From NCBI RefSeq assembly GCF_000234665.1, contig NC_018324.1, positions 2,600,944-2,664,943 of the forward strand: 64,000 bases of DNA, written 5' to 3'. The position numbers and the translations under genes were made by a program. The notes under the pieces were generated by a model, which was not told where the DNA came from, ran no database searches, and saw only the letters and a list, made by a program, of their open reading frames with translations. The stretch is from Leishmania mexicana MHOM/GT/2001/U1103 (Eukaryota; Euglenozoa; Kinetoplastea; Trypanosomatida; Trypanosomatidae). Each line of letters starts with the position of its first letter. Position 1 is the stretch's first letter. Positions 32,023-61,732 of this stretch are shown here, one piece after another.

Positions 32023-32748
32023 TTACTCGTGATTGCGAAGTTTCTCCATCCAGATACGGCAGCCATATTCGCGGTAGAGTTCCTTCAGAAGCTGCACAAA
32101 ATCGATGCGTGTCCGGGCCTCGTAATAGAAAGTCAGCTTTTTCTTGTCAAACTGGTACTCTGCGTACGCAATCTCCATCGGCAGGCCATGCGAGCGTGCC
32201 TTTGCCTGACAGAAGGCAGCGGCCATCGCCTCAGCATCTTTCAGATCGGTTGCCCAGTAGTCCACTTCGCGTTGGGTGGCGTGGCGCAAAATGCTCCCGA
32301 CAGGGCCTGTGCGTTCCACATACGTTTTTTGAGAGCTTGTGTTGACGCGGATCACAACCCCGATATCGATACCTCGGTCGCCCTGAACCACAACGTACTG
32401 GCCTTTATCCACCTCCATCGATGACACAAATTCAGCTTGATGGCACTTGAACTGCACAAGGGTGTTGCACACCGATGGCCCGCCAGGAGCAGGAGGGGCA
32501 CGGTCCTCTTTTTCCTGAAATAGCTCGTGCGCAGGCAGCGTATAAGCATCTTCCATATCCGCCATCATGTCAGCAGCGGAGTGAGTGCCTGCAGGCAAGC
32601 ACTTCCACTTGTACGGGTTGTGTTGAGCAACGGTGCGTCGAACCACTGCAGGGGCTACAGGAGCCACGTTTACCGCCGCAATCTTCCCCTTTGGGGGTTG
32701 CGGGAGCGTCGCTTGCACATTGGTGATATCTGTCAGTGTGGCAAGCAT
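32023..32748 (-). CDS. PSP1 C-terminal-domain protein
   Basis: This 241-aa protein starts at ATG 32748 (MLATLTDITNVQ). The C-terminal 100 residues form the PSP1 domain: GQYVVVQGDRGIDIGVVIRV, then a spacer, and YAEYQFDKKKLTFYYEARTRIDFVQLLKELY with the final CRIWMEKL. PSP1-domain proteins are common in trypanosomatids and bacteria (YaaT), and several associate with RNA or translation regulation. The specific role here is not known. The N-terminal half is Ala/Pro-rich and probably disordered. The frame is open upstream to 33096, but that part is unlike protein (Cys, Phe and Ser-rich), so the inner ATG is chosen. In this window it is the last gene on the chromosome-36-like arm, beside the junction. 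Confidence 0.8.
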   Translation of the reverse strand: MLATLTDITNVQATLPQPPKGKIAAVNVAPVAPAVVRRTVAQHNPYKWKCLPAGTHSAADMMADMEDAYTLPAHELFQEKEDRAPPAPGGPSVCNTLVQFKCHQAEFVSSMEVDKGQYVVVQGDRGIDIGVVIRVNTSSQKTYVERTGPVGSILRHATQREVDYWATDLKDAEAMAAAFCQAKARSHGLPMEIAYAEYQFDKKKLTFYYEARTRIDFVQLLKELYREYGCRIWMEKLRNHE

Positions 32749-33719
32749 CTTGAAACGAAGTGTATGTATGAAAATGCAATAATAAAAAAGACGCGTGCGT
32801 GTATGAACAAGAAAACAAACAGTAGAACTAGTACAATCGTTGAAATCTAGAAAGGTACAGGGAGTTACAAGGCGGAAGAGGTTTAGAACTTGCAAAGCCA
32901 GGGCGCCTATAGATCGCTCTGTAACCAAGCATTTATCTACTGTGAGTTGCGGGGAATAAATAGCGTGGCACACACGAGAAGCAGAGAGGACAGAAGGCAT
33001 GAGGATAAATAAAAGCATACGAGGCGAGTTGCTCAGCAGAAGGATCACAGAGGCTGACATGCGCCCCTCAAAAAATGTAGCTTTGTTTCGCGGCACCCCT
33101 TGATATTCGAAGAGATGATGTCATTTAAACGCCGCCACACGCACGTACGTATCTGACTATAGGCACACAAACACACAAGAAAAACATCGGCACAGCATGC
33201 CAAAGTGAAAACCAGGTCACCTGCGACTGCCGTCCCTTTTACTGAAGAACGGACACCATAGAATATTATCATTCGTCATTTTCTTCACCTCCAGGCGAGC
33301 ACAGATGTTTTTCTTTTTTTCACTGCGATTCCATACAGGCGCGCAGAGGCATCAGCAAGGCTAAAAAGTTTCATTCACACAAACATGCATTCTTGCACAA
33401 AAGTGCGTCGACCAGTAAAGGTCTACGTTTGTTCGACCACGTCATCTCATGCAGGGCTCAATATCGTTCCTCTACACGACGATGCGTCATCAAGGCCAAC
33501 TACCTCACCTGGGGGTGGTGCTGCATCCGCACCCATTTCTAAGCCTACCAAAACCCCAAAGACACTCTGGAGAAATGGTGCTGCGCAACGCGGCTTCATC
33601 TCTAGTTTCATCTTTCCTCATCAGTTCCGAAAAGTTGCAGAAGGAGAGAGAGTCACAAGAACAGGCACACGCAGTAGTCAGCTCAGAGATGGGGGAGGGG
33701 AGGAGTGAGCACTCAGCGG
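32749..33719. other. Left flank of the gene-free junction gap
   Basis: Ordinary-looking spacer, A/T-richer than what follows, with no gene. It includes the 5' region of the PSP1 gene. No tandem telomeric hexamers (CCCTAA or TTAGGG) were found here. Confidence 0.6.
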
Positions 33720-35369
33720 AAATGTGTCGGCGAAACCCCCTCCGCAGCCACAGACCACAACACATTCTGCTGGCCCCCACTCGGAACCTCATGCAACCGG
33801 GTGCGCGGACAGAGAGCCTTTGCCGAAACCCACTCACCAGATCCACTCCAGGCTGGAAAAGGGATGTGCCTCCCCCCTCGGCGTGCGTCCGCGCACCTCT
33901 GTCGATGACGCGTGTGCGGCACACGCCGTTTCAAGCGGCAAAAAGCACCTTTGGCGAAATTGCGCGGACAGGCGCAATCCACTTGAATGGCGGCTGGGGT
34001 GGCGCTCCGCCCCCGGCCTGGCATCGTGGTCCATCAACGGGGGAAGGCGTTGGCCTTGTGGGAAACCGCGTGCGGGAATGCGACTGTGTACCGAGAAAAA
34101 AAAACCGTGCCACCCCCCCAAATTATCGCGGTACCATCTCATGGTTGAGCAATTCGTCGGCAGAAAAGTCTTGTATGCAGGCGTTGCCTAACGGTAAGGA
34201 AGAAAGTTTCGACAAGCCGCTTTCCCTCTTTTTCCCCAGTCTTGCACGCACAGTGGTTTTTAGCCCGCGCCAGCGACCTTTTATTCCCTGAAAAGAGCAA
34301 GGCGGCGGGTCCCAGCGAAAGCGGCCCGCCGTGTGCCTCGGGTCCGCGCGCGTTGCCTACGAACAAGCGCCGCGCCTCCAAGATCGACCTCCTGCGCAGC
34401 ACTTGGTTTCCTCCACGGGTCAACCCATAGCCCGCCCAAACTGACGGATAAGTCCGCCGCCTGAAGGACCCTCTTTGAATGGGGAATCTGCGGTGGCCAT
34501 GTTTCTCGGCGCTGCGGCGTCATGCGGGGGCTCCCGCGTGGGGCGGTGCCGCGGCCCGGGCGTCTTGCGCCGTGGCGCGCGCGCCTCGCGGAGGGATCCG
34601 CGTGGGGGAAACGCATCCGGCACCGACCCCCACGCCATCTGCTGGCTGTGCCTTGCTTCTTTCCGAAGCCGTAGCCGCAAAGCCGCCCCACCCCTTGGCC
34701 CCCCAGAAACCGGTGTTCATGACTACACGCCGGATCGCCGTGCCGCCGGTGGGCTCGCCGAGAAGTGGCCTCATTGGGTGGTCGGCTTTTCTGTGTTAAT
34801 GCCTTGCTTTGCGTCCGGGGGAAAGCGTTTGCGCTTGCGCCAAAGCCGCCGCCGCGACGGCTGCGCACCGTGCCTGGCCGCGCGCGCCCATGTCCGTAAT
34901 TTGGTCTTGCGGGTTGCCGGCCGCCACTGCCCACCCTCGTGTGTGCGGGGCCTGCTTTTCGCGGCGGCGGGGCACCCGCGACGCCAACGCTGCTCTCCGT
35001 CGGCGCGCCGAGTGCTGACAAAAAACCCGCCGTTTCGGAAGGCCTTGTTCCACAGCGGAGTTGCCGGGGAACTTTGCAAACAAAGGCGTTTCCTTGGCGT
35101 GCTAAACCACGCGCCGGGGAAAATGGGGCAGGCGGCGCCGCCCCCAAAAGCGTTTGCGCATCCCAACGGCGAAAAAGAAGGCGTGACCCCCCGCCGGTGG
35201 CGAAGCTTGGATGCGGGGGCGGGCCCTGCGCCTCGGCGCTTCTTGCCGCCGGGGGGGGTGTCCGCGCGCGGGGTGTGGGCCGGTGTGCTGTGCGGGGGTT
35301 GGGGCCGGGGGGGGCCCGCGCCCCGTGCCCCCAAGCCAACACCCGCCCCCCAACCCAAACCCGAACACC
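33720..35369. other. Anomalous GC-rich, homopolymer-rich block
   Basis: About 1.65 kb whose texture differs from everything else in the window. GC is visibly much higher, and the sequence is studded with short homopolymer runs (CCCC, GGGG, AAAA, TTT). There is no recognisable gene or repeat unit. Several long open frames on both strands exist only because GC-rich sequence has few stops. The right end runs directly into the truncated SIDER2 copy at 35370. Just before that point it seems to hold a garbled version of the retroposon's expected 3' sequence. It may be real junction or subtelomere-derived DNA, or unpolished low-quality sequence used to close a gap. Confidence 0.7.
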
Positions 35370-35828
35370 GCCGCACACACACGCGCCACGGCAACGCGCC
35401 CACTCAGCCACCCGAGCACGGCCCCCCGCCTCAAGCCCTACCCACCCACACCCGCTCCGCAGGTCGCCTCGCAGACGTCCCCCGTTGCGCCATCCACCAC
35501 GCCGTACGACGGCGGGGCCGGGTGGGATGCGCTCCGGTCGCGCTGACACTTCGCCCATCATATCGGCGGCGCACGCGTGTCCACGCTCGCAGGCCGCTCC
35601 GGCGCAGCACCATCCTGGACACGACCGCCGGCATCAGCAGCAATGCATGGCTCTGACCTCCCCCGACGTCGTGGGTGCTTGACCCTGCCACCATCAGAGG
35701 CGGTTCCGCATCAGCAGGTGGGGGGATGGCAGGGAGGAAGCGGGGGCTGCTTGGCTTCCCCGCAGACCGACAAGACACGGAACCCTGTGACACCACGCGG
35801 GGGGGGGGGGGTCCCCTCACAGTCATCC
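35370..35828 (-). mobile_element. SIDER2-type degenerate retroposon, copy A (3' truncated)
   Basis: 459 bases nearly identical to copies B and C. Sense is taken as the minus strand because, there, the motif GTGG-TGTCACAGGGTTC and, about 100 bases on, ATGGTGGCAGGGTC resemble the two 79-bp signatures shared by trypanosomatid ingi/L1Tc-clade elements. Compared with B and C it lacks about 54 bases at its 3' (left) end, where the anomalous GC-rich block begins. The poly-G tract near 35800-35812 is the longest of the three copies. It lies 745 bases downstream of the RPC2 stop. Confidence 0.8.
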
Positions 35829-36572
35829 CGGTGGCGGAGAGGGGTAGACGCTAAAAAAACGACAGGCGTGGCGAAGAGTATATCTGTGGATGTGTGTAAG
35901 AGCTCTGCGGTTGCACTGCGCATCTCTGTAGAGCATGTGGCCTTGCTTGCACCACAGTGCGTGCACAACATCGCACGCAGTCGACCCTCTTCCTGCGGGC
36001 GTACTCAATGTAGACCATGTTGAAGCGCCATACGGAGGATAAAGGCGCGCAAGACCGTCCTCTCGCGCCTCTGGTTACCCTCAGCGTAAGCGGAGGGATC
36101 ATCCTGGACCACGTTTTATGCCCGTGGTTGTTGGTGGAGGGAATGGCATGTGGAAAGGGAACAAGGGTCACAGATGCCGTGCGGGGCGCAGTGATCAGAG
36201 GACCAAACAGTGAGGCGGGTGTAAAGAGGGTACGAGCGCGAGTGTGTAGAACGAGCGAGGGATGGCGCGGAGATGACGACGGGGGACGCCCACAAGCCGT
36301 CTAAAGGAATCTGTTTCAAGAGACGCCGCGAACGTGTGCCGTCCTTGTGCCACGTCAGGGAGGGAGGTGGGCCACATCTCATTTATTTTTCGGGATGGTG
36401 AAGCAGGACAGTTGTTGTCAGAGCCGTCGCTGAGGCCTCGCGAGAAAACAAAACTAGCTCCGCGTGCAACACAGGGAGTGCATGACTGAACGCTGCTAGT
36501 TTTCTGTCCATTACACGGGGTATCGTTAAGAGGAAAGGGAAAGAAGATGCGTAATGCCACTCCGCGTGGCGG
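35829..36572. other. Probable 3' UTR of RPC2, no gene seen
   Basis: About 740 bases between the RPC2 stop and SIDER2 copy A. No open frame of quality and no telomeric repeats. A short A-run at 35852-35859 lies just beyond the retroposon 5' end. Confidence 0.5.
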
Positions 36573-39500
36573 CTATGTCGGGGAGTCCATTGTGAGGCGA
36601 AGACTGACACCCATGCCCTGTAGTTCTTGGATCAGTAGCTTGAAGGCGTAGGGCATGTTCACCTTGGAGGTAGTCCCCTTGGTTTTGCAGTACGTGCACC
36701 GATTGTTGTAGCCGAGGTTACCGCACACGTGGCAAATGTCCGCCGTGAACATGTCGGAGCTGATAAGCAGTCGCTCGTTGAGGAGGTTGGACGCGCCGTA
36801 GCCCACCATGCAGTCGCGCTCCATCTCACCAACGCGGAGTCCTCCACTGCGAGACCGGCCCTCGGTTGGCTGGCGAGTCAGCATCGACCGTGGCCCGGTC
36901 GAGCGGGCGTGCATCTTGTCTGTGACCATGTGCTTGAGGCGCTGGTAGTAGATGGGGCCGAAGAAAACGTAGCCCTGCATTAACTCGCCCGTGATTCCCG
37001 AATAAAAGACATCCTTGCCGTGGTAGTTGTAGCCAAAGGAGAGGAGCTGCTGGCTGATGCTGTCGGCCGAGTCGCCGCCGAAGGCGGTGCCGTCGCCCAT
37101 CGACCCTCGAAGCGCTGCCGCCTTAGAGCAAACGAGCTCGAGCAGCTTGCCGACCGTCATGCGGCTGGGGAAGCCGTGCGGGTTCATGATCATATCGGGG
37201 CACATGCCGCGCTCGTTGAAAGGCATGTCAACTCCGTTCACAATCAGGCCGACGACGCCCTTCTGGCCGTGACGTGATGAGAACTTGTCACCGGGCTCTG
37301 GTGGTCGCACCTCCCGCGTGACCACCTTAACTTTCTGATCGACGTCGAGCGACCTGTCGTAGTCGCCGGGGGGCGAGATGATGACATGGTCAACGACCGC
37401 AGGCTGCGGATACTTGTACACTAGCGGCGCCGGCCGCGGGTCACCGCCAGCGACCGGGGTGAACTTGTTCACGAGGACGTCGTACTGCTGCACAAGGACA
37501 CCTTTGCTGGCAACGCCGTCTGGGTTGAGTGCCTTGAACTTCCCGGTGCCGCTATTCTTCTCCGGCGGCAAGATGACATCGAACTCGCCGCCCGCGTACT
37601 TTTCCAAGTCCACTTCGTGCTTGCGCAGCACCACGCAGCGGCCGTACCCGCGGTCCAGGGAGGACTTGTTGTACACCTGCGCATCCTCAATATCGTAACC
37701 GCTGTAGCTCATGACGCACACCATGGCGTTGATGCCGGCGCCGAGCCTTTCGTAGTGTGTCAGCGACATGGCCTTTGTGCGGCACAGAGGCCGCTGTGGG
37801 TAGGCACCGAGGAGGAGCACCGTGTCGGCGCGTATGTATTGGTTGAGCGCCACGGTGCCGAGGGCCTGCTTGCCCATGGCGGACTGGAAGGTGTTTCGGG
37901 CGGACTGGTTGTGGTGCGGGTAAGGGATAATGCCGGCCACGACGCCCAATAGCGACAGCGGCTCCACTTCGAGGTGGGTGGTGTAGGGCCTGATGTCGGC
38001 AGGGTAGACGGCGATGAGGCAGTCATTCGATTCATTCACGTCCACGTACTCGATCAGCCCCTCCGCCAGAAAATCGTTGTGGGTGCACAAGCGGTCGCGC
38101 AGGCGGTCGAGGTGGGCGGAGGTGACGGCCGGCTTTCCGTCCCGCACGATGATGAGCAGGCGAACGATGCGACCGCCATCACTGCCGATCTGGACGGTGC
38201 GCTGCCGTGGCTGCGTTGAGATGGACACGTGCGGGTGAAGACGGCCGGAGCGCCGGAGAGCGCGGATGCCGGCGCAGAGTCGGTTGGGGTAGCGGTGAAT
38301 GCCAATGAGGGTACCGTTGAGGAACACGGTGTAGTAGTGCAGAAAGTCCGTCGGCGTAACCGTGTCGATCTCCTCCACGCCAAGTGAGTGCGCGGCGGCA
38401 CGGACGTAGTTGTCGTTCAGGTCCAAGGTGACCTGACTAAGCGTCGCAAAGTTTTTCACCAGACCGCAACTCTCACCTTCTGGCGTATCGCAGGGGCACA
38501 CCATCCCCCACTGACTCGGCTGCAACGAGCGTGGGCCACTTACCTTGCGCGTCTTCTCGAACGAGGACGCCAGCCTTGTCATCATGCCGAGGCTGGCAAT
38601 GTACGAGAGTCTCGAGAGCACCTGTGTGATGCCCTGCCGGTTCATGTTGAAGCGCTTCAAGTCCCATCGCCCACTGCTGATCGCCATGCGCATGCCGTTC
38701 TGGATCACCTCCATCTTGCTTTCCATCAGCTGCTTCACGTTGAAGGGGCGCGTGGAGTCCTTTTTCGACAGCTGCTGATCCATCGCCGTCTTCACAACGC
38801 GGTTAAATTGCTTCAGCAAGTCCTCAAACAAGAGCGCCATCAGCGTGCCGGTCGTCTCGAACCGCTTGTTGCCGTAGAAGTCGCGCTCGTCAAGCAGCGA
38901 TGCGTCGAAGCTGGCCTCGATCATGCCACGTACCATGAAACAGACGTAGAACGCCTTGTGGCGAAAGTTCCAGTCCTTCTGCACCTGCGCCTCCCGAATG
39001 TGGCAGAGCAGCACGTTGGCGAGAAACTCGGCCGCCTTGTCGGCCTTCGACCTGTTCACTTGGCGCTGCTGCGTCTCCTCCGCCTCCCACACCGTCTCCT
39101 TCCGCTTCTCGCCGATGTACTGCAGGGCGTCGTTTTGCGTGACCACGTTCAACAGACGCGCCTCCTCGAAGCACGGAAAAAGGATCGCCTGAAACTCTGG
39201 CGAAGTGCCGATGCACTGGGTGATGTGCTGATCATTCTCCAAGCCGAGTGCCTTGAGCACGACAATGATCGGGATGTCCTCTGTGAAGGAGCGATGCGTG
39301 AGCACGATGCTGCCCTTCTTGAAGGTAACGGCGCACTTGGAGATGGAGTAGTGCGTCTTGCTCTGCACGTGGGCCGAGATGCTGCCGTGTTCGTCAGCCT
39401 CAATGATGACACGGTTCTTGCTCTGCTGCTCCTGAACCAGGCACACCTTTTCAACGCCTTTGATAATGAAGTAGCCACCAGGGTCGAGTGGGCACTCGCG

Positions 39501-39971
39501 CATGTTCACCAGCTCTTCGCGTGTTTTGCGGTACAGGTTGCAGCACTTGGACTTAAGCATAATCGGTATAGTCCCGATCTTTACGTCTTTCTCGACCAGC
39601 ATCGCTCGCGAGCGGTCGCGGCTGGTGTACTGGACATCTACGATCATGTCGCCTCGGTACGTCATGTCCCGAATACGGCACTCCTGCGGCGTCACAAGCT
39701 TTGGTATGTGACCTTTGCCAACAATCTCCTGTGGCCGGCAGATGCGAATGTTCTGGTAACGAATCACAAAGTCCGGGTCGACGGTGCTCTTGATTTCGAC
39801 GTTGGACTCGTTCAGCAGGATTCGCTGAAGCTCAACCTCGATCAAGTGGTCGAATGAGGCGATGTGGTGGTTGAGAATGCCCCGCATACCCATGAGTGCG
39901 GGAAGCATCTCCAGCTTCTTCCGCTGGTACTCCTCCCCGAAGTCTGACATGGCGTGCGCCCCTGTGAACAT
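36573..39971 (-). CDS. RPC2: RNA polymerase III second-largest subunit (RPC2)
   Basis: This 1132-aa catalytic subunit of Pol III transcribes tRNA, 5S and (in trypanosomatids) many snRNA genes. Diagnostic Pol III blocks match human RPC2 closely: [59 protein letters not shown], and [13 protein letters not shown]. Universal beta-subunit motifs follow: [33 protein letters not shown], and [17 protein letters not shown]. A C-terminal zinc ribbon ([16 protein letters not shown]) closes the protein. Length equals the human 1133 aa. Either ATG 39971 or 39950 (MSDFGEEYQ) may start; a T/C tract lies upstream of both. It is the first gene on the chromosome-20-like arm beside the junction. Confidence 0.96.
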   Translation of the reverse strand: [1132 protein letters not shown]

Positions 39972-43644: not shown

Positions 43645-44863
43645 TCAAAAATGCAGCTTACAGCGAAGCGGTGCCCTGCATTGTAGCGTGGGTCGGCGCG
43701 CGGGAAGGTGGTAAAGGCACGTGAAAGAAAAGGACACAGAGGATTGGGGGAGCGCCAGTGAGCAGATAAGGAGAGGATCACCGTACGGTGCACACAGGGG
43801 CAATCACGTTCGAAGGGTTCTTCATAGTCATGAAAAAAAGCGGGAAAGGGAGGGGTGCGCCCGGTGTGTGCCATTGAATCTCCGCGCAGCAAATGCGCGG
43901 CTCGCACGGGGCACCAGACCCTCTGCAAGAGCGCCGGCAACGTTTTAGTGGGATGGCGACCTTCACACGTGTGAGAAGGCGGGGACATCGCAAAAGGCAG
44001 ACCAGTGCCATGCTGTTCTGTTTGGATACGCAAATACTCTTCGGAGGCACTTGGTATAGCTCCTTAATGTGAGTGCCGTGGACTCCCTCGGCAGTTCAAG
44101 TCACAGGCCTGGAAGAGCTGCAGAATATACCAGCGCTCAGCTCATGGCCGAGAGTCAGATGGCACACGAAAGAAGAATAATAATCAAAGGCACGAGAAAT
44201 AAGGGGCTGATAAAGCAGATAGAAGAAGCAGCTCCCCTTGCCAACGAAGACGAGTAAGGTGTGGGTACAACACAGCCCAGCCATCTCTCCACCAACTGTC
44301 CTTCTCGCATACACGTCCCGTGAGCTTGTCTCTCAGCGACAGAGGAGAGAACGGTATATCCAGGGAGGGCGTGAGCGGGTTCGCGGAGCAGAAAAAAAAA
44401 TCAGGCTCGATGGAGCGATACGGCTATGGGCAGACACAACAGACAACAAAACCGAAAAGTCAGTGCATCACACCAACACAGACAGAGAGAGTGCGAGAGA
44501 CCGACGCATAAAAGGAAAAAAAACGAAGGAGAAATAGGCGACAAGTGGAGACGAGAGAGGGAGAGGGAGGGTGGGTGAGAGGGAGGCATTACAGCGGGAT
44601 GCAAAAGGGTGAGCCGGCAGAAACCACCGCATATAGTCCTTCGAACCCGCCTTCCCGCGTGGCTCAAGCCATCTCTGCTACCCTTTCTCTCCCTCCCCCC
44701 GCCCCCACAAACACGCAGACCACAGCGCAACCAGGGTGTCCAGCACATATGTAGTAACACACAACACACAGACGCAACAGAGACGAAACAGTAGCGATAA
44801 GGCGCAACAAGGGTGTAGACGCGCACCAATGCAACCGCCGCACTCTCCTGCTAGCACCTCCAT
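43645..44863. other. Spacer upstream of DOT1, no gene seen
   Basis: 1.2 kb between SIDER2 copy B and the DOT1 start. It has a GGGA-rich purine block near 44552-44583 and, on the plus strand, a C/T tract near 44680-44708. A minus-strand frame overlapping the DOT1 start (43596-44033) has poor composition and is not accepted. Confidence 0.55.
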
Positions 44864-45370
44864 TCCGCTGTACCGCCCGCCATTCGCACAGGCCCCCATC
44901 GCGTGGTGCCAAGCAGCCGCACACACACGCGCCACGGCAACGCGCCCACTCAGCCACCCGAGCACGGCCCCCCGCCTCAAGCCCTACCCACCCACACCCG
45001 CTCCGCAGGTCGCCTCGCAGACGTCCCCCGTTGCGCCATCCACCACGCCGTACGACGGCGGGGCCGGGTGGGATGCGCTCCGGTCGCGCTGACACTTCGC
45101 CCATCATATCGGCGGCGCACGCGTGTCCACGCTCGCAGGCCGCTCCGGCGCAGCACCATCCTGGACACGACCGCCGGCATCAGCAGCAATGCATGGCTCT
45201 GACCTCCCCCGACGTCGTGGGTGCTTGACCCTGCCACCATCAGAGGCGGTTCCGCATCAGCAGGTGGGGGGATGGCAGGGAGGAAGCGGGGGCTGCTTGG
45301 CTTCCCCGCAGACCGACAGGACACGGAACCCTGTGACACCACGCGGGGGGGGGTCCCCTCACAGTCATCC
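44864..45370 (-). mobile_element. SIDER2-type degenerate retroposon, copy B (longest)
   Basis: 507 bases, the most complete copy. Read on the minus strand, the 5' region begins GGATGACTGTGAGGGG, runs through the poly-G/C tract and signature-like GTGGTGTCACAGGG, then the second signature-like GATGGTGGCAGGGTCAAGC, and ends at GCGGTACAGCGGA. Copies B and C share exactly this 3' end, so it is probably the true terminus; no poly-A follows. It starts only 132 bases downstream of the phosphate permease stop, in sense orientation, as is usual for SIDER2 in Leishmania 3' UTRs. Confidence 0.82.
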
Positions 45371-45502
45371 GGGTACACACTCGATGAACGGAAGCAAAAC
45401 AATCGAGGAAACAAGAGACGTCGGGGTGTGGCGAGATAGAGGTGTGGCCATCCACCGATGCAGACCTGAAAAGAGCGCAGGAAAAAGGGAACCGACGGAC
45501 CT

Positions 45503-48141: not shown

Positions 48142-49131
48142 CTACGCCTCCTCGGCCGCAATCAAAGCCTTTTTCCGTTGACGCAAGCTACGGCCGTCGC
48201 ACGGGAGCCTGCGGGCGCGTGCTGCGTCGACGTGTTGAACCCTGTCTTTCTGCGCAAGGGCGAGCACGGCAGCGGCCTCATGCAGCACGTCACGCCGAGG
48301 GCACTCGTTCAACGCCTTCCCCAGCGCCTTGAGACGCCCGAGGTGCATGAAACACGCGTACAAATCTCGGTCCTGCGCTTCGGTCGCCTGAAGCCGCCTG
48401 CGCATGATGGCCTCGGAACGGATGAGGCGGCAGACTGCCTTAAACTCGTGCGGTGTCAATGGTGTGAGCTTTGAGAACTCACGGTCCATGGATGCTGCCA
48501 TGTCGCGCTGAGACTCCTGCCATTCGCGGAAAAGCGCTCTTCGCCCGCTAAGCTCACATGCGACCATATCCTTGACGGCGGCCTTGAAGAATGCGGACGC
48601 CATAGTGTTAAAGCGATTCCTCGCCATCGCCACCAGCTGGTGGCGCTCGTACCGCTCCAGATCTATCAGCTCCTGTGCCGCACGCGCGAGGTCGCTTCGG
48701 CGACGCGCCTCTCGGTCAGCATGGCTGATGTAGGACGGGCGTGCAATCTGTGACACTCTCCTCTTGTTCAGCATGGCTGCAACTCCTTTCCTCCGCAGGT
48801 TGCGTATGAGGAGCTGCTGCAAGGGATCTGCGTACACGTCTTCTGAGTCGCAGCGCGCGCTGCTGTTCCAACGCTGGCGCGGCATCGTGGAATGGGTGCT
48901 GGCCAGAGCGACCGTGTCAAGGCTGTCGGTGAGCGCGGAAGTGCGAAGGGCGTTGGAGAACTTCAAGGAAAACGCGTTGTCGCTGGACCCACGGCGGAAG
49001 ACAAGCCAGTTGCTCTCTTTGCTGCAGATCATGCCAGCAGCAAAGGGTTCATCGCCACCCGGTTTCTGCGCTGCACGCTTCCAGGCGCGCTCGTCGCGAA
49101 CAAAGGCGTGTATATCAGCTGCAGAGAGCAT
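48142..49131 (-). CDS. Unrecognised basic helical protein
   Basis: This 329-aa protein starts at ATG 49131 (MLSAADIHAFVRDERAW). It is basic and largely helical in the C-terminal two-thirds, with blocks such as REARRRSDLARAAQELIDLERYERHQLVA, VKDMVACELSGRRALFREWQ and DRDLYACFMHLGRLKALG. The regular W/R/E spacing is reminiscent of long helical bundle or IQ-like repeats, but no defined motif is matched. No signal peptide or membrane span. The C-terminus is Arg/Lys-rich. The family is unknown to me. Coding status is well supported by length and codon texture. Confidence 0.7.
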   Translation of the reverse strand: MLSAADIHAFVRDERAWKRAAQKPGGDEPFAAGMICSKESNWLVFRRGSSDNAFSLKFSNALRTSALTDSLDTVALASTHSTMPRQRWNSSARCDSEDVYADPLQQLLIRNLRRKGVAAMLNKRRVSQIARPSYISHADREARRRSDLARAAQELIDLERYERHQLVAMARNRFNTMASAFFKAAVKDMVACELSGRRALFREWQESQRDMAASMDREFSKLTPLTPHEFKAVCRLIRSEAIMRRRLQATEAQDRDLYACFMHLGRLKALGKALNECPRRDVLHEAAAVLALAQKDRVQHVDAARARRLPCDGRSLRQRKKALIAAEEA

Positions 49132-61249: not shown

Positions 61250-61732
61250 TCCGCTGTACCGCCCGCCATTCGCACAGGCCCCCATCGCGTGGTGCCAAGC
61301 AGCCGCACACACACGCGCCACGGCAACGCGCCCACTCAGCCACCCGAGCACGGCCCCCCGCCTCAAGCCCTACCCACCCACACCCGCTCCGCAGGTCGCC
61401 TCGCAGACGTCCCCCGTTGCGCCATCCACCACGCCGTACGACGGCGGGGCCGGGTGGGATGCGCTCCGGTCGCGCTGACACTTCGCCCATCATATCGGCG
61501 GCGCACGCGTGTCCACGCTCGCAGGCCGCTCCGGCGCAGCACCATCCTGGACACGACCGCCGGCATCAGCAGCAATGCATGGCTCTGACCTCCCCCGACG
61601 TCGTGGGTGCTTGACCCTGCCACCATCAGAGGCGGTTCCGCATCAGCAGGTGGGGGGATGGCAGGGAGGAAGCGGGGGACTGCTTGGCTTCCCCGCAGAC
61701 CGACAGGACACGGAACCCTGTGACACCACGCA
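61250..61732 (-). mobile_element. SIDER2-type degenerate retroposon, copy C (5' truncated)
   Basis: 483 bases, nearly identical to copies A and B. The 3' end is the same as B (GCGGTACAGCGGA on the minus strand), with different flanking sequence beyond it, confirming the terminus. At its 5' end the match stops after GTGGTGTCACAGGG-type signature sequence, before the poly-G/C tract present in A and B. One extra A occurs in the AGCGGGGG-A-CTGC stretch. It lies 1.27 kb downstream of the channel-like gene's stop. Confidence 0.8.

What the first reader, a model, noticed from the sequence alone, without database searches (positions are those of the whole stretch)
32749..36572. Window spans an ancestral chromosome fusion (36 right end to 20 left end)
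The left arm carries a gene set (CCT-theta, KREPA2, PDI, delta-6-type desaturase, eIF3c, MYST HAT, PSP1) that, from memory of L. major, lies at the right end of chromosome 36. The right arm (RPC2, WD40, DOT1, PiT permease, BRCA2, ASF1) matches the left end of chromosome 20. The only gene-free gap between the two sets is this 3.8-kb interval. The 36/20 fusion is known in the L. mexicana complex, but the base-level structure of its junction is what this window appears to show. No tandem telomeric hexamers remain, so any telomere has been lost or was never included.
Basis: partly seen in the sequence, partly recalled or inferred. Interest (0 to 1): 0.88.

Follow-up and report, generated by a model that had tools for sequence, protein, structure and literature searches.

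The report
Scar of an ancient chromosome fusion
This stretch of a Leishmania genome is most likely the scar where two once separate chromosomes joined end to end: it keeps decayed pieces of both old chromosome ends, and it lets an already known fusion be read at the level of bases.

Summary
The window lies in contig C20 (3.34 Mb) of a 32.03-Mb genome that fits L. mexicana. In L. tarentolae and Porcisia one gene from each side lies on contigs of quite different length. The two halves of C20, 2.636 and 0.707 Mb, nearly match whole chromosomes 36 and 20.

New here is the anatomy of the join. Bases 34511-35242 are an 81% copy of the left subtelomere of C27, polarity telomere-to-the-right. Bases 35892-36119 are a decayed copy of a 326-bp repeat found mainly at chromosome ends, polarity telomere-to-the-left. 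Between them, G/T-rich DNA flips to C/A-rich DNA at 35315, the sharpest such switch in the window. It is followed by a degenerate CCCTAA stretch (35323-35368), which abuts a dispersed repeat cut short at 35370.

I read this as a decayed head-to-head telomere fusion. The chromosome-36 half of the join keeps base skew but no recognisable hexamers, so the telomere-to-telomere reading is likely, not proven.

The parts
32023..32748 (-). PSP1-domain gene, last gene of the chromosome-36 arm before the junction
   Evidence: Pfam PF04468; Leishmania homologues of 241 aa on contigs of 2.43-2.75 Mb
32749..34510 (.). chromosome-36 right flank; probable start region of the chromosome-36 transcription unit (inferred)
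   Evidence: no other copy of 32980-34300 found in the genome
34511..35242 (-). chromosome-36 right subtelomere relic: 81% copy of C27:696-1428, which lies about 480 bp inside a (CCCTAA)n telomere; polarity says the telomere lay to the right
   Evidence: no third copy found; 132 substitutions in 730 aligned bases, three gaps, one of them a single base, no codon periodicity
35243..35314 (+). G/T-rich, A-free stretch (45 G, 15 C, 12 T, 0 A), where a TTAGGG array of chromosome 36 would be expected; hexamers not recognisable
   Evidence: 2224 of 3000 mononucleotide and 2092 of 3000 dinucleotide shuffles score as well
35315..35315 (.). inferred fusion point: largest G/T-to-C/A switch of the 64-kb window
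   Evidence: half-widths 40, 50, 60 and 80 (at 50, five positions reach the local maximum)
35323..35368 (-). degenerate telomere array in chromosome-20 left-end polarity (CCCTAA-like on +); includes three successive minus-strand hexamers TTNGGG at 35348-35365
35370..35832 (-). SIDER-like dispersed repeat, cut short at 35370 where the telomere-like DNA begins (strand and family name recalled)
   Evidence: the copies at 44.9 and 61.3 kb continue 52 bp further; 33 of 38 rows outside the window's three copies continue further too
35892..36119 (+). chromosome-20 left subtelomere relic: decayed copy (68-76%, about 110 bp missing) of a 326-bp repeat found mainly at chromosome ends; polarity says the telomere lay to the left
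36573..39971 (-).
   Evidence: Pfam; third ORF of 200 aa or more on from the gap is DOT1, fitting LmjF20.0030

Best explanation
The gap is the scar of a head-to-head fusion between the right end of ancestral chromosome 36 and the left end of ancestral chromosome 20, in the lineage leading to L. mexicana. SHOWN: one gene from each side lies on contigs of different length in two other species; the halves of C20 have nearly full chromosome lengths; the gap holds a right-end-polarity subtelomere relic, then a strand-composition switch, then a degenerate CCCTAA-like stretch, a truncated dispersed repeat and a left-end-polarity subtelomere relic. INFERRED: both ends had lost their usual telomere-associated block (LCTAS; name recalled) by the time of joining, or it decayed later. 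The chromosome-20 end had earlier broken inside a dispersed repeat and been capped by new telomere repeats, and then the two short telomeres were joined. The relic no longer exchanges sequence with true chromosome ends, so it has decayed. The genes on both sides read leftwards, so a unit that used to run out at the chromosome-20 telomere now runs towards the start of the chromosome-36 unit. The scar is therefore expected to act as a head-to-tail transcription boundary.
For: Comparative; fusion in print, passages. Chromosome-36 side: one other copy of 34511-35242 was found, at C27:696-1428, inside the C27 telomere and its adjoining block. Chromosome-20 side: one search finds 9 places, one of them the window; of the 8 others, 7 lie within 8.7 kb of a chromosome end, these 7 in the polarity that puts the telomere to the left in the window. 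Middle: no other 18-mer in 64 kb comes within 4 mismatches of TTAGGG repeats; 35348-35365 has 3. 1 of 60 whole-window shuffles and 1 of 2000 shuffles of 35243-35369 reach 3. 35323-35368 gives the best of 6393 80-bp windows; 10 (mononucleotide) and 12 (dinucleotide) of 3000 shuffles of 35315-35369 reach its score. The G/T-to-C/A switch at 35315 is the window's largest. The dispersed repeat stops exactly where this begins.
Against: The chromosome-36 half (35243-35314) is not telomere-like by hexamers: 2224 and 2092 of 3000 shuffles score as high. Compared with 21 left ends it has only a weak best match in right-end polarity (19 of 300 shuffles as good), and the right half matches ends equally rarely by chance in either polarity (2 of 300 both ways), so that measure does not settle polarity. 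Twelve-base telomere-like matches are not in excess over the window (21 found, 24 expected). In the combined scan a non-junction site at 44631 scores nearly as high (54.0 against 58.5). 7 of 15,460 background windows reach the 80-bp score. The 326-bp repeat also has one internal copy, at C34:492 kb, so it can move. The dispersed repeat is about 99% identical to two neighbours, so it is young or was gene-converted, and its age says nothing about the fusion. No LCTAS was found at the scar. No other species' junction or telomere could be aligned here.
Confidence: 0.8

Rival explanations
1. The two chromosomes joined after both had lost their telomeres. Subtelomeric ends were joined by microhomology repair, and the C/A-rich stretch at 35315-35369 is chance or another C-rich remnant. 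It is still a fusion of 36R and 20L, but not telomere to telomere.
For: The left half has no recognisable TTAGGG, and no LCTAS was found there. Leishmania is reported to favour microhomology and single-strand annealing repair (seen only as titles and abstract openings of PMC6706467 and PMC4912120 in the listing).
Against: The best telomere-like site of 64 kb and the largest strand switch of 64 kb coincide in the 127 bp between two subtelomere relics of opposite polarity.
Confidence: 0.16
2. Assembly artefact: chromosomes 36 and 20 were scaffolded together by mistake.
For: A 99% identical repeat lies at the junction. The right end of C20 looks mis-ordered in this assembly: a telomere-associated block lies 6 kb inside and another subtelomere block beyond it is reversed. 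I found no independent assembly of the join.
Against: No N in the window. Print reports the fusion, with one detectable replication origin on the joint chromosome (passages). Part of the junction is DNA with no other copy found, next to decayed end sequences of both polarities.
Confidence: 0.02
3. The joint chromosome is the ancestral state, and other species split it.
For: Fission is reported in Sauroleishmania for other sites (PMC5335649, passages).
Against: The two genes are on contigs of different length in L. tarentolae and Porcisia. In T. brucei eIF3c is Tb927.10.8270/8290 and one of the two DOT1 genes is Tb427_010005600 (that this is DOT1B, and that '01' means chromosome 1, is by order of listing and recall). 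Decayed chromosome-end sequence at the join is expected from fusion, not from an unbroken ancestor.
Confidence: 0.02

Closest known systems
L. mexicana chromosome 20/36 fusion (PMC4612428, PMC6375703; passages seen)
   Different: The passages I saw describe synteny and origins, not the bases of the join
Human chromosome 2 fusion site (PMC12926204; only the abstract opening in the listing; array structure recalled)
   Same: Head-to-head order with subtelomere copies on both sides and decayed telomere DNA between
   Different: Here only about 46 bp of one array is recognisable; the other half keeps base skew only; and a truncated dispersed repeat abuts the relic
Chromosome 20 joined to another partner in the L. 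braziliensis group (20/34 fusion, recalled)
   Same: The chromosome-20 gene is on a contig of up to 2,649,252 bp in that cluster
   Different: Different partner; which end of chromosome 20 was used I could not tell

Membership tests
Head-to-head telomere fusion site | Flanking gene sets lie on separate chromosomes in relatives | tested here: met
   One gene per side: L. tarentolae 2,700,252 and 695,244 bp; Porcisia 3,844,477 and 768,166 bp; lengths fit whole chromosomes but contigs, not chromosomes, were seen
Head-to-head telomere fusion site | Subtelomere-derived sequence on both sides, in opposite polarity | tested here: met
   34511-35242 (one end homologue) and 35892-36119 (seven end homologues, one internal)
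Head-to-head telomere fusion site | CCCTAA-type repeats on the right half | tested here: met
   Degenerate: best of 6393 windows; 1 of 2000 local shuffles
Head-to-head telomere fusion site | TTAGGG-type repeats on the left half | tested here: not met
   2224 of 3000 shuffles as good; only G/T skew is present. I therefore claim that it looks and works like such a site, not that all defining features are met
Head-to-head telomere fusion site | One of two centromeres or origins silenced | not testable with these tools
   In print: no origin peak at the chromosome-36 equivalent site on L. mexicana chromosome 20 (passages)
SIDER retroposon family | Short dispersed repeat with many diverged copies across chromosomes | tested here: met
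   41 rows on C6, C8, C18, C20, C24, C27, C29, C31, C32, C33; only 40 of 495 candidates scored
SIDER retroposon family | 5' signature and poly-A tail | not tested
   No consensus at hand; the name is recalled

The most novel reading that the evidence does not exclude
Before the fusion, the left end of chromosome 20 had lost its normal cap (telomere-associated block), broken inside a dispersed repeat and been healed by telomerase. That weak end made chromosome 20 fusion-prone, which would explain why it was joined to chromosome 36 in the L. mexicana group and to another chromosome in the L. braziliensis group. The scar now serves as an internal transcription boundary.
Probability: 0.25. Interest if true: 0.66.

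Novelty: new member of a known kind. Interest (0 to 1): 0.5.

Why it matters
The fusion is known, but in the searches I ran I saw no account of its bases. A readable scar says how it probably happened (end to end, in short or failing telomeres), gives a fixed marker for asking whether all members of the L. mexicana complex share one event, and offers a natural case of a chromosome end turned into an internal transcription boundary. It also bears on the printed observation that the joint chromosome shows one detectable origin.

Tried and rejected
Perfect telomere repeats in the window: none among the 21 matches; 12-mer matches not in excess. LCTAS-type block at the junction: none among 47 rows, with 40 of 50 candidates scored; the right-hand rows on C22, C23, C26 and C33 are on contigs whose length I did not see. 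A protein gene in the GC-rich part: the three ORFs at 33449-34291(+), 34281-35561(-) and 34499-35656(+) have no Pfam match, and the minus ORF has no relative at E 0.001 among the 7991 candidates scored. I had hoped that an ORF crossing 35315 would find independent assemblies of the join; it did not. tRNA and Rfam RNAs in the window: none at the thresholds used (ARAGORN ran with its bacterial setting). Left-half telomere hexamers: rejected; left half against 21 left ends: weak. Gene ids above LmjF.36.7000 in print: none for the spellings tried (not every spelling), a weak hint that numbering ends near there. The sister 8/29 junction was not located: I had no marker for it. The BLAST part printed nothing (probably an unsupported scoring choice) and is not used; its pairwise alignments are. 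The telomere pattern search of the genome (1399 forward, 809 reverse) listed only its first places, so it says nothing about internal arrays.
Full report
WHERE THE WINDOW IS. The window is G000:C20:2600944-2664943 in a genome of 32,032,822 bases and 545 contigs. C20 is 3,343,498 bp and C8 is 1,671,993 bp. A paper gives about 3.3 Mb for L. mexicana chromosome 20 and says that L. mexicana chromosomes 8 and 20 are syntenic with L. major 8+29 and 20+36 (PMC4612428, passages); another mentions the 36/20 fusion (PMC6375703, passages). The species name is an inference from contig sizes and print.

THE TWO ARMS. L. major has two DOT1 genes, LmjF07.0025 and LmjF20.0030 (PMC10951340, passage); L. mexicana DOT1B is LmxM.20.0030 (PMC11788152, passage); LmjF.20.0030 is DOT1 in a third paper (PMC4538839, passage). 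The window's DOT1 is the third ORF of 200 aa or more right of the gap, which fits. On the left, L. major names a fatty acid desaturase LmjF.36.6950 (PMC5380837, passage) and eIF3c LmjF.36.6980 (PMC4320536, passage); LmxM.36.6980 is eIF3c in L. mexicana (PMC6939940, passage). I matched the window's genes to these by kind and neighbourhood, not by alignment. T. brucei has eIF3c at Tb927.10.8270/8290 and a DOT1 gene at Tb427_010005600; reading '01' as chromosome 1 is recall.

SEPARATE IN RELATIVES. PSP1 (left of the gap) and a 329-aa gene at 48142-49131 (right of it) were searched in a large protein collection that reports the longest contig of each cluster. Two species have both genes as single-member, single-contig clusters: L. 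tarentolae, 2,700,252 bp (PSP1) and 695,244 bp (right-arm gene); Porcisia hertigi, 3,844,477 and 768,166 bp. Other clusters: PSP1 up to 2,748,001 (named L. major), 2,730,217 (L. enriettii), 2,430,671 (L. utingensis), 1,478,621 (Leptomonas pyrrhocoris) and 4,054,025 bp (T. brucei); the right-arm gene up to 732,590 (named L. infantum), 732,099 (L. martiniquensis) and 745,034 bp (L. sp. Namibia). Two rows depart: the L. braziliensis cluster has the right-arm gene on up to 2,649,252 bp, which fits the 20/34 fusion I recall for that group, and Porcisia has PSP1 on 3.84 Mb. Of the 8 proteins, two more are on contigs of 1.5 and 3.1 kb and say nothing. The inferred fusion point cuts C20 into 2,636,258 and 707,240 bp, so both halves are nearly whole chromosomes. 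The unfused state looks older.

CHROMOSOME-36 SIDE OF THE SCAR. Window 34511-35242 matches C27:696-1428 in reverse at 81% (730 aligned bases, 132 substitutions, 93 transitions, 39 transversions, gaps of 2, 2 and 1 bases, and by codon phase 42/53/37, so no sign of coding). No third copy was found. C27 begins with (CCCTAA)n to base 213, then a telomere-associated block, then this piece. The orientation means that in the window the telomere lay to the right. The next 1 kb of C27 has no match found elsewhere, so only this piece is shared.

CHROMOSOME-20 SIDE. Window 35892-36119 matches, at 68-76% and with about 110 bp missing in the window, a repeat of about 326 bp. A whole-genome search with the C15 copy found 9 places: the window; seven at chromosome ends (C15 1.4 kb, C6 0 and 4.0 kb, C20 8.4 kb and C21 2.0 kb from the left end; C30 7.4 kb and C25 4.4 kb from the right end); and one internal, at C34:491830. 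The seven end copies have the same polarity towards their telomere, and by it the telomere lay to the left in the window. The copies compared (the C21 copy was not among them) are 89-98% alike; the window copy is far more decayed, as expected once it no longer exchanges sequence with true ends.

BETWEEN THEM. The 127 bp 35243-35369 split at 35315: 72 bases with 45 G, 15 C, 12 T and no A, then 55 bases with 34 C, 13 A, 7 G and 1 T. The switch from G/T to C/A at 35315 is the largest in the window at half-widths 40, 50, 60 and 80 (at 50, five positions reach the local maximum). On the minus strand 35348-35365 reads as three hexamers TTNGGG, each differing from TTAGGG only at its third base; no other site in 64 kb is within 4 mismatches of an 18-base telomere repeat in any phase. 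One of 60 dinucleotide shuffles of the whole window reaches 3 mismatches (18 of 60 reach 4), and 1 of 2000 of the local 127 bp reaches 3. With gaps allowed, 35323-35368 is the best telomere-like stretch of 6393 windows; in 15,460 windows from the 20 fetched left ends (2.2-10 kb), 7 reach its score, 6 of them beside a real array at C6 and one at C2. The left half, by the same measure, is no better than chance (2224 and 2092 of 3000 shuffles). Compared with 21 left ends, the left half's best match in right-end polarity is reached by 19 of 300 shuffles; the right half's by 2 of 300 in either polarity. So one half of a head-to-head array is supported by sequence, the other by base skew and position alone.

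THE CUT REPEAT. From 35370 rightwards lies a dispersed repeat with near-identical copies at 44864-45374 and 61250-61731. Those two share 52 further bases on the left that the junction copy lacks. In a search with 44830-45374 (41 rows; 40 of 495 candidates scored), 33 of the 38 rows outside this window's three copies also reach further left than the junction copy. The repeat thus ends exactly where the telomere-like stretch begins. I infer a break inside the repeat, capped by telomere addition, before the fusion. Gene conversion from the neighbours, reaching as far as the homology allowed, would explain the 99% identity; it does not by itself explain the missing end.

WHAT IS MISSING. The telomere-associated block of C27:214-695 has 46 other rows in the genome (40 of 50 candidates scored), none at the junction (the right-hand rows on C22, C23, C26 and C33 could not be checked against contig length). 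So either both ends had lost it, or it has decayed past recognition.

HOW IT WORKS NOW (inference). The ORFs with Pfam matches on both sides are on the minus strand; most long plus-strand ORFs were not tested. The chromosome-20 unit used to run out towards its telomere, and the chromosome-36 unit began near its own. At the scar these are placed tail to head. No tRNA or Rfam RNA marks the boundary. A ChIP-seq study in L. mexicana reports bromodomain-factor peaks at subtelomeric starts and inside units (PMC9279504, passages); whether one lies here I could not see.

NOVELTY. The fusion is in print. Base-level description was sought with searches and not seen; these show listings and passages only, the library holds open-licence papers only, and the paper I would most expect to have it (doi 10.1101/gr.122945.111) is not held. 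I rate it a new, readable example of a known kind of event.

Noticed in passing
window 35370-35832, 44864-45374, 61250-61731: Three about 99-100% identical dispersed repeats in direct orientation within 27 kb bracket the polymerase gene to the phosphate permease and the genes beyond; direct repeats of this kind could support local amplification or deletion.
   Followed up: partly
G000:C34:491830-492143 (L032:1285-1611): One copy of the subtelomeric 326-bp repeat sits alone in the middle of a chromosome, about 98% identical to three end copies, with no other shared flank among the loci compared.
   Followed up: partly
G000:C20:3337194-3343498: The right end of C20 looks mis-ordered in the assembly: a telomere-associated block lies 6 kb inside, and a subtelomere block at the very end is in the opposite polarity to its kin.
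   Followed up: no
Porcisia hertigi, PSP1 homologue P0009: The chromosome-36 gene lies on a 3.84-Mb contig while the chromosome-20 gene is on 0.77 Mb, so chromosome 36 may be joined to a different partner there.
   Followed up: no
L. braziliensis-group cluster P0128: The chromosome-20 gene is on a contig of up to 2.65 Mb, so chromosome 20 may have been joined twice in the genus, to different partners (partner 34 recalled).
   Followed up: no
window 34001-36000: The scar is markedly G+C-rich (0.65-0.69 per kb against 0.43-0.58 in the flanking kilobases 31-34 and 36-37), and its module is richer in G+C than the C27 copy (0.69 against 0.62).
   Followed up: no
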